A stretch of 34,483 nt of DNA from Akkermansia muciniphila. GTDB taxonomy: Bacteria > Verrucomicrobiota > Verrucomicrobiia > Verrucomicrobiales > DEV007. Below, piece by piece: positions 1 to 32,350 of this stretch. Both the position numbers and the translations under genes were made by a program. The stretch lies in assembly GCA_945883495.1 (NCBI GenBank), contig CAMCXS010000062.1, positions 1 through 34,483 on the forward strand, written 5' to 3'. Numbering within the stretch: position 1 is the stretch's first letter; each line of letters starts with the position of its first letter. The notes under the pieces were generated by a model that searched no databases, was not told the DNA's origin, and saw only the letters and a list, made by a program, of their open reading frames with translations.

Positions 1-124
1 CTCTCACGCTCTCACGCTCTCACGCTCTCACGCTCTCACGCTCTCACGCTCTCACGCTCTCACGCTCTCACGCTCTCACGCTCTCACGCTCTCACGCTCT
101 CACTCTCCCACGCTCTCACGCTCT
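1..124. repeat. Octamer tandem array (CTCTCACG)n
   Basis: Twelve perfect copies of the 8-base unit CTCTCACG run from position 1 to 96. Two variant units (CTCTCACT, CTCCCACG), one more perfect copy and a half unit ending at 124 follow. The array is cut by the left edge, so its true length is unknown. It stops exactly at the stop codon of the M16 peptidase gene, so it forms the immediate 3' flank of that operon. There are no spacers, so it is a microsatellite and not CRISPR. Its length probably varies between strains by slippage (inference). Confidence 0.97.
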
Positions 125-28200: not shown

Positions 28201-28363
28201 GCTCACCGACGTCCACGGCCTGATCGACCGCTTCGGCGCACCCAAAGAAATCCTGCAGGAACGTCAGGATCTCAAGCTCTGGGACAAATGGCCCCTGCTC
28301 GTCCTCTTCCTGGCCTTCATCGGCCTCGAGTGGATCCTGCGTCGCAACGCTGGGCTGAGCTGA
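25214..28363 (+). CDS. Membrane protein with vWA and class I glutamine amidotransferase-like domains
   Basis: The 1049-residue protein starts with four membrane segments (near residues 15-37, 53-75, 79-99, 113-133). A vWA domain follows, whose MIDAS motif DDSES is at 151-155 (Asp151, Ser153, Ser155). Between this strand and the rest of the domain is a helical, Leu/Gln-rich insert of roughly 200 residues. The vWA fold resumes at RYSVRFVRFGHD and LLLTDGRHNAE. Ig/CARDB-like strands come next, then a GATase1-like region (TNVLLVDNFPRWEFRYLRNL; FDAIIIGDVPPAAIDD), and a last membrane helix at the C-terminus. BatA-type proteins of Verrucomicrobia and Planctomycetes share this plan, often beside MoxR ATPases; none is in the window. 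The final 90 bases are duplicated at 30383-30472. Confidence 0.88.
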   Translation: MTPAINRHDLLPGTIPVLLLASVALGILFVWWLAYRITGERTQGIPGLIFRAVRVALGSAAIWLAWQVLGRFFLLETSWPLWLCALLGGLSFEVIQWLYRFERAFVTPGRGRTLLALRLGALATLLVILVQPVLSRMTEREISREVVVVVDDSESMQLVDQQNTLSGQLAVAKLFAPEALANRPDLQPLLRSVRAWQAELAGQRQALAAPSGADPGLLEQLVQSHATNLSSSLDSIRPKLGESINVLKTAAAAAHGDGNLLRQVEDLQRPFQEQLPRALDEARRQVDAKNHLAVTGQLQAAEDQLSMVLRQLPLLIGQLDEAFYRNLPTDQRDRIDKAAAQPRAEIARRSLLQPDAAGRSVLDALKERYSVRFVRFGHDVADFDGESWLTGGTPLTPEADVTHFRQTTDLTAALEDAIAKVPSEALGGVLLLTDGRHNAEIPAEDAARQLGAQGSPLCAVTIGSSIGPRDASVLRVTAPQSIYLGDRVGVRAEVKLDGLQGQKVRAQLFAGDKAVAEEFVSVPESQYRTELRFSHAPPEKGILDYRVELEPIQGELFSNNNRWDFKCAVTDDRTNVLLVDNFPRWEFRYLRNLFYGRDKSVHLQYVLLNPDKITGQDDRPSIPASAARPFGAAEATRLPENAAEWRKFDAIIIGDVPPAAIDDATWRAIRQAVAERGSLLVFVAGPRYLPNQQQNATFADLLPVARPDATSEVASEAFRVELTQAGHTSPILQQSLSGSSNRQIWASMPSLPWRSTPGAIKEGAEVLAYAVPESAPSLDATNSFSGAPGDVEAALEQLARQKEFEKKNALLVTHRFGLGRVVLLNFDSTWRFRYGIGDTYHHKFWGQLLRWGTGENLRSGGEFVRLGTDQLSYTPNSPIQVSARVLDRNLQPVTGGGIYVSLFRGTQRLQRQQMTYREGSNGMFDCSLDPIATEGDYKLVLEGGPVERARQESGLSSIETPLIISRTRSPVEFAELTADHDSLAQLTQLAGGSLASLTDVHGLIDRFGAPKEILQERQDLKLWDKWPLLVLFLAFIGLEWILRRNAGLS
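28274..28363 (+). repeat. Direct repeat copy 1 (3' end of vWA gene)
   Basis: These 90 bases encode the C-terminal membrane helix and stop codon of the vWA protein. They recur at 30383-30472 with three differences (AA to CC near the left end, G to C near the right end). The copies flank the ATPase-nuclease cassette in direct orientation, as attL/attR do when an element inserts at the 3' end of a gene and restores it. No integrase gene lies between them. Confidence 0.93.
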
Positions 28364-28463
28364 GCCGGTTGATTGACGAGAGACGAATGACGATTTTTGG
28401 TTTCCGATCCGATCCAACCTCAACAATCGTCAACCGGACCTCGTCCCTCCGTCCCTCGTAGCC

Positions 28464-28633: not shown

Positions 28634-29074
28634 TCAATCATCCGTGAGCTCATGTCTACCAACCTGTGCCATCACTCGAGTCTCCGCATTCCAGCGCTTT
28701 TTCAGCTGAGTCTGCCGGTTCTGATAGCCCGTCCTTTCCTTCGGAACTTGCGGGTACTTGGAGCAAACGATGAAGCACCAGATCTGCGGTCGAAGGTGGG
28801 GTGCTGTTTCCACCAACTGTGGAATGCTCGCCTCCAACTGATCAAATGCCGCCATCACCTTCCTGCCCTTCAATTCCACGAAGTGATGACGGTTCTTCCA
28901 ATCACGCACGAGGTAGTCGCATCGCTTCCCTTGCATCGGAACACATTTATCGATCTGAATCTTCTCGGCAATCCGCTCCGCCGATTTGTGAAAGATCATT
29001 TTGCGGTGATTCTCCTCACAGACCAACTCCGCCCCTTGATGCTCTTCGATGCACTTTCGCGGAATATCGATCAT
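28634..29074 (-). CDS. Small PD-(D/E)xK nuclease-like protein, partner of ATPase
   Basis: The 146-residue protein has an arrangement typical of the PD-(D/E)xK nuclease core: Glu33 in an N-terminal helix, Asp53 (CDYLV), then Glu67-Leu-Lys69 in HHFVELKG, and Gln78 in FDQLEASI. The stretch PQIWCFIVCSKYPQVP gives the next core strand. The C-terminal third is basic (KKRWNAETR) and could bind nucleic acid. Its ATG overlaps the ATPase stop by 4 bases, so the two proteins are made together and probably form one complex. I do not recognise a named family; the nuclease assignment rests on the motif pattern alone. Confidence 0.7.
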   Translation of the reverse strand: MIDIPRKCIEEHQGAELVCEENHRKMIFHKSAERIAEKIQIDKCVPMQGKRCDYLVRDWKNRHHFVELKGRKVMAAFDQLEASIPQLVETAPHLRPQIWCFIVCSKYPQVPKERTGYQNRQTQLKKRWNAETRVMAQVGRHELTDD

Positions 29075-30309
29075 ATGACGGCGGCTGGAAGCAAGGACAA
29101 GAGATCGTTAAACTGATCCGCAATCGTATCCGAGGTTTGGTCAATCGCATCTGCTTGGATCAAACCCGTCTCCTCATCAATGATCGACCGGCAACCGGAA
29201 CGATCCATGTAAAAGACACCCACATCTTTGGGATCGAGCGCCCGGTCTTCTGGCACGAATGAGGCCAGTCTGCCGCGGTCAACCCCGGGCTCCTGATACA
29301 ACTGGCCGGCCAGCAATAGATTGTTTAGCGCCGTCAGGAGATAAGGGCTGTGGCTCGTGATGAACATGCGGGTCTCACCACGCGACGCACGGAAGGCCAA
29401 GCTGATCAATTCCGTCATCAAGCGCTGAGACTCGGGAAATAAATGCGCTTCCGGCTCTTCAATGAAAAGAGTGTCCGCGCGAACTCGTCCCTCGCAACAA
29501 CGTTCCAAGTACAGAGATAGCGGATGCGCCTCTTGCTGGCCAGAGCTCCAAAAGCGAGCTGCTACTCTCCGCCCATCTCTGGTGACGATTGCGTCCTCAT
29601 GATTCTCCCGGACATAGTCGCCATCCAAAATGGCACGCACCAGATGCGCTGCTTCCAACGCCTCAAATGAATTTGGCCTCGGCAGCTTCGGCCGTTTTTT
29701 GAGTAGACCTAAGGCAAACCCAAATCGGGAGACAAATGGGTCGAAGCTCTCGCTCTTGAAGAAGGTAGCGGCATTCTGTTCGATGAGAGAGTAAACCGCC
29801 CGGGCCGCAGGGATGAATTGGGATCCACTCGGGAGACTGGGAATGCACCGTGAAAGCCGACGTATCGCCATGCCCAGAGATTCCTCCGAGGGTTCACCAA
29901 GACCAGCTCCCGGCCCATTCGATAACAAGCCGACCACATCGCGGTACGGCTTCTGAACCTCCGGAGGAAGATGCACCGCCCAAAGGTCAGAAGGCTCGGC
30001 AGCTAGGCTAATTGAAAGGTTCTCTACAGAATCATATTGAATCGCAGCTTTACCGGCCGCCCCCAGATATTCGTACGCGTATGAAGCAAGAGAACGCTGC
30101 AAATCTCCCTCGCCGTCGGCCTCCTGCTCTGCCAGCCAGACCAACTCTTTGGGGATCGACTTCAGCGTGAACAAAACCTTGGCCACCAGACTCTTCCCAA
30201 CGCTATTCGGACCGATCAGCACGGTGAACGGCTTAACCTCCAGCTCAAGCCGCTCAATCCCGGCAAACCGGTTGATGATCACCCGTTCGCTCTGGTTCCT
30301 CTCCGTCAT
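29071..30309 (-). CDS. AAA15/OLD-like ATPase (no TOPRIM domain)
   Basis: The 412-residue ATPase has an ABC/SMC-type site: Walker A GPNSVGKS at residues 33-40, a signature-like SSGQQ at 255-259, Walker B LFIEEP at 281-286 with the catalytic Glu pair, and the switch His320 in TSHSPYLL. The opening IINRFAGIERLELEVKPFTV and the closing GVFYMDRSGCRSIIDEETGL are typical of the AAA15/AAA21 group. It ends there, without the TOPRIM nuclease domain of OLD or GajA proteins. The partner encoded in overlap is a PD-(D/E)xK-like protein. ATPases of this group act as sensors in several phage-defence systems, which suggests that role here (inference). Confidence 0.88.
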   Translation of the reverse strand: MTERNQSERVIINRFAGIERLELEVKPFTVLIGPNSVGKSLVAKVLFTLKSIPKELVWLAEQEADGEGDLQRSLASYAYEYLGAAGKAAIQYDSVENLSISLAAEPSDLWAVHLPPEVQKPYRDVVGLLSNGPGAGLGEPSEESLGMAIRRLSRCIPSLPSGSQFIPAARAVYSLIEQNAATFFKSESFDPFVSRFGFALGLLKKRPKLPRPNSFEALEAAHLVRAILDGDYVRENHEDAIVTRDGRRVAARFWSSGQQEAHPLSLYLERCCEGRVRADTLFIEEPEAHLFPESQRLMTELISLAFRASRGETRMFITSHSPYLLTALNNLLLAGQLYQEPGVDRGRLASFVPEDRALDPKDVGVFYMDRSGCRSIIDEETGLIQADAIDQTSDTIADQFNDLLSLLPAAVI

Positions 30310-30382
30310 CAGAAACCCTTCGCTGATTCACCCTCTGACGTCCAGAGCGGACCGCCCAAAGAAACTACAGGAAAGGGGCGTT

Positions 30383-30472
30383 AAGCTCTGGGACCCATGG
30401 CCCCTGCTCGTCCTCTTCCTGGCCTTCATCGGCCTCGAGTGGATCCTGCGTCGCAACGCTGGGCTCAGCTGA
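30383..30472 (+). repeat. Direct repeat copy 2 (partial vWA gene 3' end)
   Basis: This is the second copy of the last 29 codons and stop of the vWA gene, 87 of 90 bases identical to 28274-28363. It is a stranded fragment with no start of its own and 73 bases from the ATPase start on the left. It marks the right edge of a 2.1-kb insertion. Confidence 0.93.
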
Positions 30473-30505
30473 ACCGCGCCGGGGTCAGCGTTCGCAGGGC
30501 CACGT

Positions 30506-30622
<117 letters not shown>

Positions 30623-30755
30623 CGTCGGCTTCCCCCCGAACCGCGCCCTGATTTCCGAGAGACGAATGACGATCTTTGATCTCCGATCCGAGCCTGGCTT
30701 GGGAAGCCTGGGAGAAGGCGATTGTGGATTGAAGGTCGTGCGCTACAATGGACCG

Positions 30756-30941
30756 GTGAGCACGATCGCGGAAATCGAAGCGGCCATCGGGAAACTGGCA
30801 CCAGCGGAGCAGATGCAATTGCTCCGTGACTTGCCCACGCTCTTGTCTCCAGAGTTGCAAGACCTGGAGTGGTTGCAGGCGGCGGAGCCATCGTTTGCGT
30901 TTTGGGAAAACGAGGAGGATGCCGTTTACGATGAGCTTTGA
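30756..30941 (+). CDS. Putative antitoxin of MazF/PemK-type pair
   Basis: The 61-residue acidic protein is helical and begins at a GTG. The start is placed there because the helix TIAEIEAAIGKLAPAEQMQL opens directly after it, as in small antitoxins with an N-terminal IAEIExAIxxLxxxE pattern. The C-terminal half (EPSFAFWENEEDAVYDEL) is acidic and would wrap the toxin. The last 11 bases overlap the toxin gene, which is the usual order for antitoxin-toxin operons. An in-frame start at 30666 is possible but lies inside a dispersed repeat. Confidence 0.75.
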   Translation: MSTIAEIEAAIGKLAPAEQMQLLRDLPTLLSPELQDLEWLQAAEPSFAFWENEEDAVYDEL

Positions 30942-31287
30942 TCAGGGAGGGGTCGTCCTGGTTCCGTTTCCCTTCACGGATCTTACCTCCAGCAAACAAC
31001 GACCGGGGCTGATCCTCCGGAGCGATCGCCTGGAACCGGATTTGGTGGTTTGCGCCATTACTTCCCAGATCAGCTTGCCTTTGTCTGCGGCGGAGTTCGT
31101 GGTCCCAAACCAGGAGTTGGCGTATTGGAGGTTGCCCAAACCGTCCAAGGTGAAGCTGGCCAAACTGTTCACCGTTCACCCTTCCCTCATCCGCAAGAAG
31201 ATCGGCTACGTTCCGGTCCGCACGCTCGAACGTGTTCTGGAACAAGTCCGGGCTTTGTTCGAGCTGGAATCGAGCGGGCAATTCTAA
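30931..31287 (+). CDS. MazF/PemK family endoribonuclease toxin
   Basis: The 118-residue protein has the MazF/PemK fold signature: GGVVLVPFPFTDLTSSKQRP with GLIL, then VVCAITSQISLPL, and a long LPKPSKVKLAKLFTVHPSLI segment followed by the C-terminal helix RTLERVLEQVRALFEL. These toxins cleave mRNA at short sites. AGGAGG lies 12 bases before the ATG at 30931; an in-frame ATG at 30919 is too close to it. It overlaps the antitoxin by 11 bases and probably shares its autoregulated promoter. The pair sits in the accessory zone beside the ATPase-nuclease cassette. Confidence 0.9.
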   Translation: MSFDQGGVVLVPFPFTDLTSSKQRPGLILRSDRLEPDLVVCAITSQISLPLSAAEFVVPNQELAYWRLPKPSKVKLAKLFTVHPSLIRKKIGYVPVRTLERVLEQVRALFELESSGQF

Positions 31288-31994: not shown

Positions 31995-32074
<80 letters not shown>

Positions 32075-32350
32075 GGCCAGGACGCATCGTCCGGTAGGGC
32101 GCTTGGTCCCACTTACCATTCTGTGTCATTCCGAAGCCTTCTGCTCCACGGGCTCGATTTCAAATCCAATCGAGGGTGTCATGCATTGTCTCGAAGCCTC
32201 GCGCACCCAATTTGTCACGTTCTGTCATGCGCGGGGCGAGGGTTCGCGGGGGCGGGTCCTGCTCGTCGATCAGATCAAAGTCCTCGTCCGGGAACATTTC
32301 GTTTCGGTGCTCGTAGTTGTCGCCTGGTCAGACCAACGACAAGCAATGAA
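32075..32350. other. Intergenic stretch, no supported gene
   Basis: Between the hexamer array and the stop codon of the large unknown gene I see no supported gene. A 45-codon minus-strand frame (32160-32297) ends LGARGFETMHDTLDWI, which looks protein-like but is too short to call. It may be the relic of a decayed gene. Confidence 0.5.

What the first reader, a model, noticed from the sequence alone, without database searches (positions are those of the whole stretch)
28634..30309. Two-gene ATPase plus PD-(D/E)xK cassette, candidate undescribed defence system
Seen: an AAA15-type ATPase (Walker A GPNSVGKS, Walker B LFIEEP, switch His in TSHSPYLL) that lacks TOPRIM, with its stop overlapping by 4 bases the start of a 146-residue protein with Asp53, Glu67-x-Lys69 and Gln78. 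Known: related ATPases pair with TOPRIM (OLD, Gabija, PARIS) or HNH (Septu) nucleases. A pair with a small stand-alone PD-(D/E)xK partner is none of those. Inference: an ATPase sensor triggering a nuclease against phage or plasmids.
Basis: partly seen in the sequence, partly recalled or inferred. Interest (0 to 1): 0.8.

Follow-up and report, generated by a model that had tools for sequence, protein, structure and literature searches.

The report
ATPase–nuclease pair, likely phage defence
Two overlapping bacterial genes encode an ATP-using switch protein and a small enzyme predicted to cut DNA or RNA; such pairs recur in many bacterial groups and once in a virus genome, and they probably protect bacteria from viruses, though this has not been tested here.

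Summary
A 412-residue OLD/PtuA-like ABC ATPase without TOPRIM overlaps by ATGA the start of a 146-residue protein with D53, E67-x-K69 and Q79 (not Q78). The small protein's model is confident (pLDDT 91.5) and has the PD-(D/E)xK order of elements. Its residue spacing closely matches the active site of the archaeal nuclease NucS. The pair is a conserved unit: in 70 of 75 homologous loci, from eight phyla by their record titles, the small gene sits beside the ATPase gene. One copy lies in a temperate-phage contig next to the repressor gene. The two congeners held lack the pair. It is not wholly undescribed: PADLOC-DB lists a candidate, PDC-M29, whose A model matches every ATPase tested and whose main B model matches 36 of 50 small proteins, though not this window's. 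No paper in the library searched names it. The best explanation is an ATPase-gated nuclease that works like Septu or PARIS with a third nuclease fold. Defence is inferred: neighbours show no clear excess of defence genes, and the substrate (DNA or tRNA) is open. Verdict: divergent relative of a catalogued, uncharacterised candidate; a new variant of the ATPase–nuclease defence kind.

The parts
29071..30309 (-). OLD/PtuA/AriA-like ABC ATPase gene, 412 aa, no TOPRIM, no HNH
   Evidence: Pfam AAA_15 3.6e-18; PADLOC AriA 2.1e-20 and PDC-M29A 1.1e-19; AF2 pLDDT 89.7, pTM 0.90; Foldseek best hits retron and Septu PtuA
28634..29074 (-). small stand-alone predicted PD-(D/E)xK nuclease gene, 146 aa, ATGA overlap with the ATPase stop
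   Evidence: AF2 pLDDT 91.5, pTM 0.88; conserved C52-D53, E67-L-K69-G70, Q79
30190..30213 (-). Walker A GPNSVGKS (ATPase residues 33-40)
   Evidence: G33, G38, K39, S40 in 69 of 71 ATPases, the other 2 gapped there
29452..29469 (-). Walker B LFIEEP (residues 281-286)
   Evidence: E284, E285, P286 in 71 of 71
29344..29358 (-). switch histidine, TSHSP (residues 318-322)
   Evidence: H320, S321, P322 in 71 of 71
29012..29014 (-). E21 of the nuclease, candidate counterpart of NucS E127
   Evidence: E or D in 72 of 76; 32 residues before D53, against 33 in NucS
28916..28918 (-). D53 of the nuclease (catalytic Asp)
   Evidence: 76 of 76
28868..28876 (-). E67-L68-K69 of the nuclease (ExK motif)
   Evidence: 76 of 76; 64 of these were found with a pattern containing ELKG, E67 and K69 are also in 12 of 12 found without it
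28838..28840 (-). Q79 of the nuclease (Gln on the helix after ExK, as in NucS)
   Evidence: 75 of 76
28274..28367 (+). left copy of a 94-bp direct repeat: 3' end of the upstream 1049-aa gene
30383..30476 (+). right copy of that repeat (96% identical): second 3'-end fragment of the same gene, beyond the ATPase gene

Best explanation
The two genes form one horizontally mobile operon that encodes an ATPase-gated nuclease. The ABC ATPase (OLD/PtuA/AriA type, without a TOPRIM of its own) forms a dimer or higher oligomer, binds the small PD-(D/E)xK nuclease and keeps it inactive. An infection signal (a phage product, unusual DNA ends or a fall in ATP) changes the ATP state of the ATPase and frees or activates the nuclease. 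The nuclease then uses its metal site (E21, D53, E67, K69, Q79) to cut nucleic acid, most likely DNA but possibly tRNA, and stops phage growth directly or by arresting the cell. Shown here: gene anatomy, conserved pairing, co-divergence, conserved catalytic residues, predicted folds, one copy in a temperate-phage contig, absence from two congeners. Inferred: complex formation, gating, trigger, substrate and the defence function.
For: Pairing (same strand, within 150 bases) in 70 of 75 homologous loci; 64 of 70 gaps lie between -30 and +10 bases, 32 are the same 4-base overlap. Co-divergence over 71 pairs: Spearman 0.51, above all 999 permutations (maximum 0.18) (shared descent of hosts also contributes). 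Small protein: model with the PD-(D/E)xK order of elements; NucS/EndoMS, Mus81, XPF, Card1, Can2, Cdn1, FokI and BsoBI are among the top 50 structural matches. Spacing D53-14-E67-2-K69-10-Q79 against NucS D160-14-E174-2-K176-11-Q187 (PMC7343888). ATPase: best matches are OLD, retron and Septu PtuA, AriA, Rad50 and SMC heads. Mobility: a copy beside the repressor gene of a contig with primase and terminase genes, copies on plasmid records, neither gene found in the 2 congeners, lower GC than the left flank. PADLOC candidate PDC-M29: A model matches 47 of 47 ATPases, B models 36 and 7 of 50 small proteins.
Against: No activity, complex or phage phenotype has been tested. Structural matches of the small protein are weak (best Foldseek E 0.065; VIA Z at most 6.0) and Rab GTPases score as well as nucleases. 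The PDC-M29A match is not exclusive: AriA and NsnB models also match 47 of 47, and AriA is the window ATPase's best hit. PADLOC hits among near neighbours are not clearly more frequent than 5.5-9 kb away. Some copies sit among glycosyltransferase or ordinary chromosomal genes, and six Flavobacterium copies lie beside one conserved gene. Only one copy came from viral contigs in four scans. One congener genome is only 81% complete.
Confidence: 0.68

Rival explanations
1. Substrate variant of the best explanation (its probability lies within that of the best explanation): the nuclease cuts tRNA or another RNA, not DNA, and the pair is a translation-arresting system like PARIS, Septu and retron PtuAB with a different nuclease fold.
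For: Three sister ATPase-nuclease pairs cut tRNA: PARIS AriB (abstract), Septu Ec-B88 (passages), retron-Eco7 PtuAB (abstract). The ATPase is closest to AriA and PtuA.
Against: The catalytic spacing is that of NucS, a DNA-repair enzyme, and most named PD-(D/E)xK matches are DNA enzymes (recalled).
Confidence: 0.25
2. A housekeeping or accessory DNA-repair pair in the manner of Rad50 with a nuclease.
For: Rad50 heads are among the ATPase matches; NucS, Mus81 and XPF are repair enzymes (partly recalled).
Against: Rare and patchy: 6 of 387 genomes of the phylum, the window's own included; neither gene in the 2 congeners; copies in a temperate-phage contig and on plasmid records; at about 412 aa too short for a Rad50-type coiled coil (recalled).
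Confidence: 0.12
3. A selfish toxin-antitoxin-like or anti-plasmid module in which the ATPase restrains a toxic nuclease and protection from phage is not the selected role.
For: Two-gene overlapping architecture, mobile; Pfam AAA_21 is annotated as a putative AbiEii toxin, type IV TA family. In the window a PemK-type gene lies about 0.6 kb away.
Against: The ATPase is a large enzyme with invariant catalytic residues, as in defence ATPases rather than simple antitoxins.
Confidence: 0.13
4. The small protein has the nuclease fold but is not catalytic (a structural or regulatory subunit), or the fold assignment is wrong.
For: Foldseek matches are weak and mixed with GTPases.
Against: D53, E67, K69 in 76 of 76, Q79 in 75 of 76, including 12 of 12 found without the ELKG pattern.
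Confidence: 0.06

Closest known systems
PDC-M29 (PADLOC-DB 2.0 candidate, models PDLC04562 A and PDLC04563/04564 B)
   Same: Same ATPase family (47 of 47 match A) and same small-protein family (36 of 50 match PDLC04563, 7 of 50 PDLC04564)
   Different: The window's small protein matches neither B model (no hit at E up to 1); its ATPase matches A only partly (69 bits) and AriA slightly better (71.8 bits). No paper in the library contains the name.
Septu (PtuA + PtuB) and retron I-A PtuAB
   Same: ABC ATPase closest in fold; separate small nuclease gene
   Different: PtuB is an HNH nuclease; here PD-(D/E)xK. Septu Ec-B88 and retron-Eco7 act on tRNA-Tyr; substrate here unknown
PARIS (AriA + AriB)
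   Same: AriA is the best PADLOC match of the ATPase (71.8 bits); ATPase and nuclease on separate genes
   Different: AriB is a TOPRIM tRNase; the small protein matches no AriB model
OLD nucleases and Gabija GajA
   Same: ABC ATPase domain
   Different: They carry a fused C-terminal TOPRIM; absent here
DUF4297-HerA
   Same: Two-gene ATPase plus nuclease complex that cuts dsDNA (abstract); DUF4297 as a PD-(D/E)xK-type enzyme is recalled
   Different: HerA is a hexameric ATPase of another class
NucS/EndoMS
   Same: Catalytic residue spacing and a weak fold match over residues 20-138
   Different: Repair enzyme, larger, no ATPase partner (recalled)

Membership tests
PDC-M29 (PADLOC candidate) | ATPase matches model PDC-M29A | tested here: met
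   E 1.1e-19, 69 bits, best stretch 283-405; 47 of 47 at E<=1e-5. Not exclusive: AriA and NsnB models also match 47 of 47. PADLOC's own cut-offs were not available
PDC-M29 (PADLOC candidate) | small protein matches model PDC-M29B | tested here: inconclusive
   P0001: no match at E<=1; 36 of 50 members of the alignment match PDLC04563 and 7 of 50 PDLC04564 at E<=0.01; P0001 is linked by tblastn to L008 (E 3e-12), which matches B at 3.3e-10
PD-(D/E)xK superfamily | D...ExK catalytic residues conserved | tested here: met
PD-(D/E)xK superfamily | core with Asp and ExK on adjacent strands, then a helix | tested here: met
   predicted model: D53 just before strand 54-57, E67 in strand 63-68 with K69 next, helix 73-87 with Q79
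PD-(D/E)xK superfamily | significant structural match to a solved member | tested here: inconclusive
   best Foldseek E 0.065 to NucS; Z 5.9 NucS, 6.0 Card1, but 6.0 Rab9A
PARIS | AriB TOPRIM partner | tested here: not met
   no AriB match; model of another fold
Septu | PtuB HNH partner | tested here: not met
   no HNH family for the small protein in Pfam, PADLOC or NCBIfam
OLD/Gabija | C-terminal TOPRIM fused to the ATPase | tested here: not met
   no TOPRIM among the Pfam matches; only about 90 residues after the switch His. GajA and Old models in PADLOC match, but the stretches shown lie in the ATPase part (best 25 of 108 families)
Anti-phage defence system | protects cells from phage | not testable with these tools
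   needs a phage challenge
Anti-phage defence system | clusters with defence genes | tested here: inconclusive
   230 near and 125 far neighbours against PADLOC; some defence hits in both, no clear excess; lists capped at 25 families

The most novel reading that the evidence does not exclude
An OLD-superfamily ATPase has acquired a third kind of separate nuclease partner, a NucS-like PD-(D/E)xK enzyme, beside TOPRIM (PARIS) and HNH (Septu, retrons). The pair is a widespread two-gene immune system, unnamed in the papers searched, whose nuclease cuts tRNA when the ATPase senses infection. That would make it a PD-(D/E)xK tRNase effector gated by an ABC ATPase.
Probability: 0.22. Interest if true: 0.72.

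Novelty: new variant of a known kind. Interest (0 to 1): 0.5.

Why it matters
It gives a catalogued but uncharacterised PADLOC candidate a concrete enzymatic identity (predicted nuclease, predicted active site) and shows that the pair is conserved across eight phyla and occurs in a temperate-phage contig. If it works as inferred, the OLD-type ATPase would be a general gate that evolution has fitted with TOPRIM, HNH or PD-(D/E)xK blades. It also raises a directly testable question: do such pairs all cut tRNA, or does the blade decide the target?

Tried and rejected
Weak hits of P0001 in the order survey (L004-L007, E 5e-5 to 1e-2; 4 of the 7 genomes that scored, of 189 searched) were rejected as chance: no HMM match, no D...ExK motif in the matched stretches, and two have in-frame stops. 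L030 was dropped before counting because its pair is identical to that of L003 (both contigs are 7,654 bases).

Exceptions to pairing (5 of 75): in L032 and L062 the gene starts within 140 bases of the end of the DNA held; L060 and L066 lack the N-terminus and have no ATPase beside them (remnants, by inference); L083 is full-length and solitary. Pairing was counted only on the same strand and within 150 bases.

Conservation caveat: 63 counted genome-contig loci were found with the pattern [YH]FVELKGx[DKH] and L013 with a similar one, so E67, L68, K69 and G70 are conserved in those 64 by construction. C52, D53, D42 and Q79 were not part of the patterns.

Sequence searches of the small protein against solved structures found nothing. 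Pfam and NCBIfam give only matches far below cut-off, PHROGs none. BFVD gave no match at E<=0.001. VIA-align 2 aligned 998 of Foldseek's own top 1000 chains, so a family that is not listed is not excluded.

Defence-island test: 230 of 249 near neighbours (length filter 100-900 aa) and 125 of 163 far genes, from 67 loci. PADLOC returned 153, 50 and 73 matching families, of which 25 each are shown. These are families, not proteins, so no rate can be given. Pfam was run on the first 115 near neighbours only.

The records L008 and L012 are labelled 'Bacteriophage sp.', unverified and unannotated; I did not count them as phage evidence.

A profile comparison with NucS was wanted but not made: the window genome has no NucS match and another centre could not be named. 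The NucS comparison therefore rests on residue numbers in PMC7343888 (one passage) and the aligner's range.

A complex model was not made: the tool folds one protein at a time, and I saw no fused pair among the loci (the long L073 ATPase ORF has an N-terminal extension that looks like read-through).

Paper searches: PDC-M29, 0 papers. PDC-M47, PDC-M56, HEC-01 or PDC-M07: 15 papers, 12 listed; 11 are off-topic by title, and the twelfth (PMC12724379) only lists HEC-01 among detected systems (passage). Other searches. The library holds open-licence PubMed Central papers and no bioRxiv collection, so a description elsewhere is not excluded. Papers seen: passages of PMC11514479, PMC12988326, PMC7343888, PMC9519451, PMC10568477, PMC10853773, PMC13096335, PMC12724379; abstracts and section lists of PMC11291478, PMC12409363, PMC11555353; all others only in search listings.

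I mended one count: 64, not 63, sequences were found with an ELKG pattern.

Full report
What is there. On the minus strand, 29071-30309 encodes a 412-residue ABC ATPase and 28634-29074 a 146-residue protein; stop and start share ATGA. The ATPase has Walker A (33-40), SSGQQ (255-259, signature by recall), Walker B LFIEEP (281-286) and a switch His (H320). It matches Pfam AAA_15 at 3.6e-18, and PADLOC AriA and PDC-M29A about equally, 71.8 and 69 bits.

The pair is a real unit. The small protein has no second match in its genome. Searches of the order and phylum, plasmid and phage records, viral contigs and the genome-contig collection gave 75 homologous loci after removing one duplicate and four chance hits. 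In 70 of 75 the ATPase gene lies just before the small gene on the same strand; two of the five exceptions start at an end of the DNA held, two are truncated, one is solitary. 64 of 70 gaps are between -30 and +10 bases; 32 are the same 4-base overlap as in the window. The two proteins diverge together: Spearman 0.51 over 71 pairs against a maximum of 0.18 in 999 permutations. Record titles name Bacteroidota, Verrucomicrobia, Acidobacteria, Chlorobiota/Ignavibacteriales, Cyanobacteria, Nitrospirae, Chloroflexi and Fibrobacter; many are metagenome-assembled. In the window's phylum the pair is rare: 6 of 387 genomes, the window's own included; in a sample of its order 3 of 189, the own included, after rejecting four chance hits.

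The small protein is a predicted nuclease. In 76 sequences C52, D53, E67, L68, K69 and G70 are invariant; D42 and Q79 are in 75; E or D at 21 in 72. For 64 of them ELKG was part of the search pattern; in the 12 found without it C52, D53, E67, K69, G70, D42 and Q79 are present in every one. AlphaFold2 with an alignment of 50 sequences gives pLDDT 91.5 and pTM 0.88: a strand begins right after D53, E67-x-K69 closes the next strand, and a helix with Q79 follows, the PD-(D/E)xK order. Foldseek finds no significant match (best E 0.065), but the top 50 include NucS, Mus81, XPF, Card1, EndoMS and Can2, beside reductases and GTPases. The VIA alignment puts residues 20-138 on NucS 126-232 at Z 5.9, Card1 at 6.0, Can2 at 5.8 and FokI at 5.5, but Rab9A also reaches 6.0, so the fold match alone would not suffice. 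The residue spacing is more telling: PMC7343888 lists E127, D160, E174, K176 and Q187 for NucS; here E21, D53, E67, K69 and Q79, that is steps of 32/14/2/10 against 33/14/2/11.

The ATPase is of the defence type. Its model (pLDDT 89.7, pTM 0.90) matches retron Ec83 and Septu PtuA best, then SMC and Rad50 heads, OLD and AriA; the profile search of solved structures gives OLD, PtuA, AriA and Rad50 first, and ABC transporters lower. Pfam finds no TOPRIM or HNH domain in either protein.

Mobility. Neither gene is found in the two congeners held (they are 96% and 81% complete). In both, the gene that lies left of the pair directly abuts a gene that reads as mutS (named by recall); in the window genome that gene is on another contig with different downstream DNA, so this junction has been broken. 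A 94-bp fragment of the left gene's 3' end (96% identical) is repeated on the far side of the pair. GC falls from 63-70% in the left gene to 52-58% at the pair, and stays at 57-60% to the right. One homologue, L013, lies in a viral contig between a methyltransferase gene and a repressor gene, with primase, HNH and terminase genes following: cargo beside the immunity region of a temperate phage. Two others are on Bacteroidales plasmid records.

Results against. PADLOC scans of 230 near and 125 more distant neighbours found defence families in both (near, among the 25 shown each: mad3, HEC-01A, PDC-S01, PDC-S05, AbiE, BrxL, AriB, DitA/B, spbK; far: Snf2-type helicases, methyltransferases, PDC-S01, mad3), with no clear excess. 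In six Flavobacterium loci the pair sits beside the same 627-residue gene (92-99% identical; it reads as dnaK, by recall), and in a B. finegoldii plasmid record inside a glycosyltransferase cluster. Only one viral-contig copy was found in four scans.

What is known. PADLOC-DB 2.0 has a candidate PDC-M29 with A and B models. A matches 47 of 47 ATPases (but so do AriA and NsnB); B models match 36 and 7 of 50 small proteins, but the window's small protein matches neither at E<=1. PMC12988326 calls PDCs putative candidates from a guilt-by-embedding screen, with validation pending for most of those it treats (passages); it does not mention M29. No paper in the library contains 'PDC-M29'. So the pair is not undescribed, but I found no characterisation, and the window holds a divergent relative. 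It is not PARIS, Septu, OLD or Gabija: the defining nuclease of each is absent.

How it most likely works. By analogy with Septu (Walker and HNH mutants both abolish immunity), PARIS and retron PtuAB, the ATPase probably holds and gates the nuclease and releases its activity upon infection. The active site argues for DNA; the kinship of the ATPase argues for tRNA, because PARIS, the Septu system tested and retron-Eco7 act on tRNA. I put the general reading (ATPase-gated nuclease in defence) at 0.68, and within it the tRNA version at about 0.25. Complex, trigger, substrate and protection are inferred, not shown.

Noticed in passing
window 30666-31287 +: A PemK/MazF-type toxin gene (Pfam PemK_toxin 1.2e-11) with a small ORF before it (30666-30941, no Pfam match) lies next to the pair; three further related matches elsewhere in the genome, none in the two congeners.
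   Followed up: partly
window 28274-28367 and 30383-30476: 94-bp duplication of the 3' end of the upstream 1049-aa gene flanks the pair, and a second 46-nt repeat pair (28370-28415, 30649-30694) lies between and beyond. How the insertion came about was not resolved.
   Followed up: partly
window 30506-30540, 31995-32075: CTCGTG/CGATTC hexamer arrays; window 30370-30700 has 78 matches in the genome, itself included, most of them to this repeat part.
   Followed up: partly
window 1-124: Near-perfect CTCTCACG octamer array at the contig end (15.5 copies, 96% matches).
   Followed up: no
L098, L099 and G000:C154 (L104): In both congeners the 1049-aa gene and a gene that reads as mutS (by recall) are convergent and touch; in the window genome they lie on different contigs.
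   Followed up: partly
L010:4707-6411: A homologous pair inside a glycosyltransferase cluster on a Bacteroides finegoldii plasmid record.
   Followed up: no
L083:7346-7819: A solitary full-length small protein between two genes that look like succinate dehydrogenase/fumarate reductase flavoprotein and iron-sulfur subunits (names recalled from sequence).
   Followed up: no
L012:1662-2984: Near the pair lies an ORF that resembles SIR2-type defence proteins by eye (recalled, not searched alone).
   Followed up: no
L051, L058, L061, L071, L077, L079: Flavobacterium genomes carry the pair downstream of the same 627-630-aa gene (92-99% identical to the copy in L051), which reads as dnaK (by recall): a fixed site or hotspot.
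   Followed up: partly
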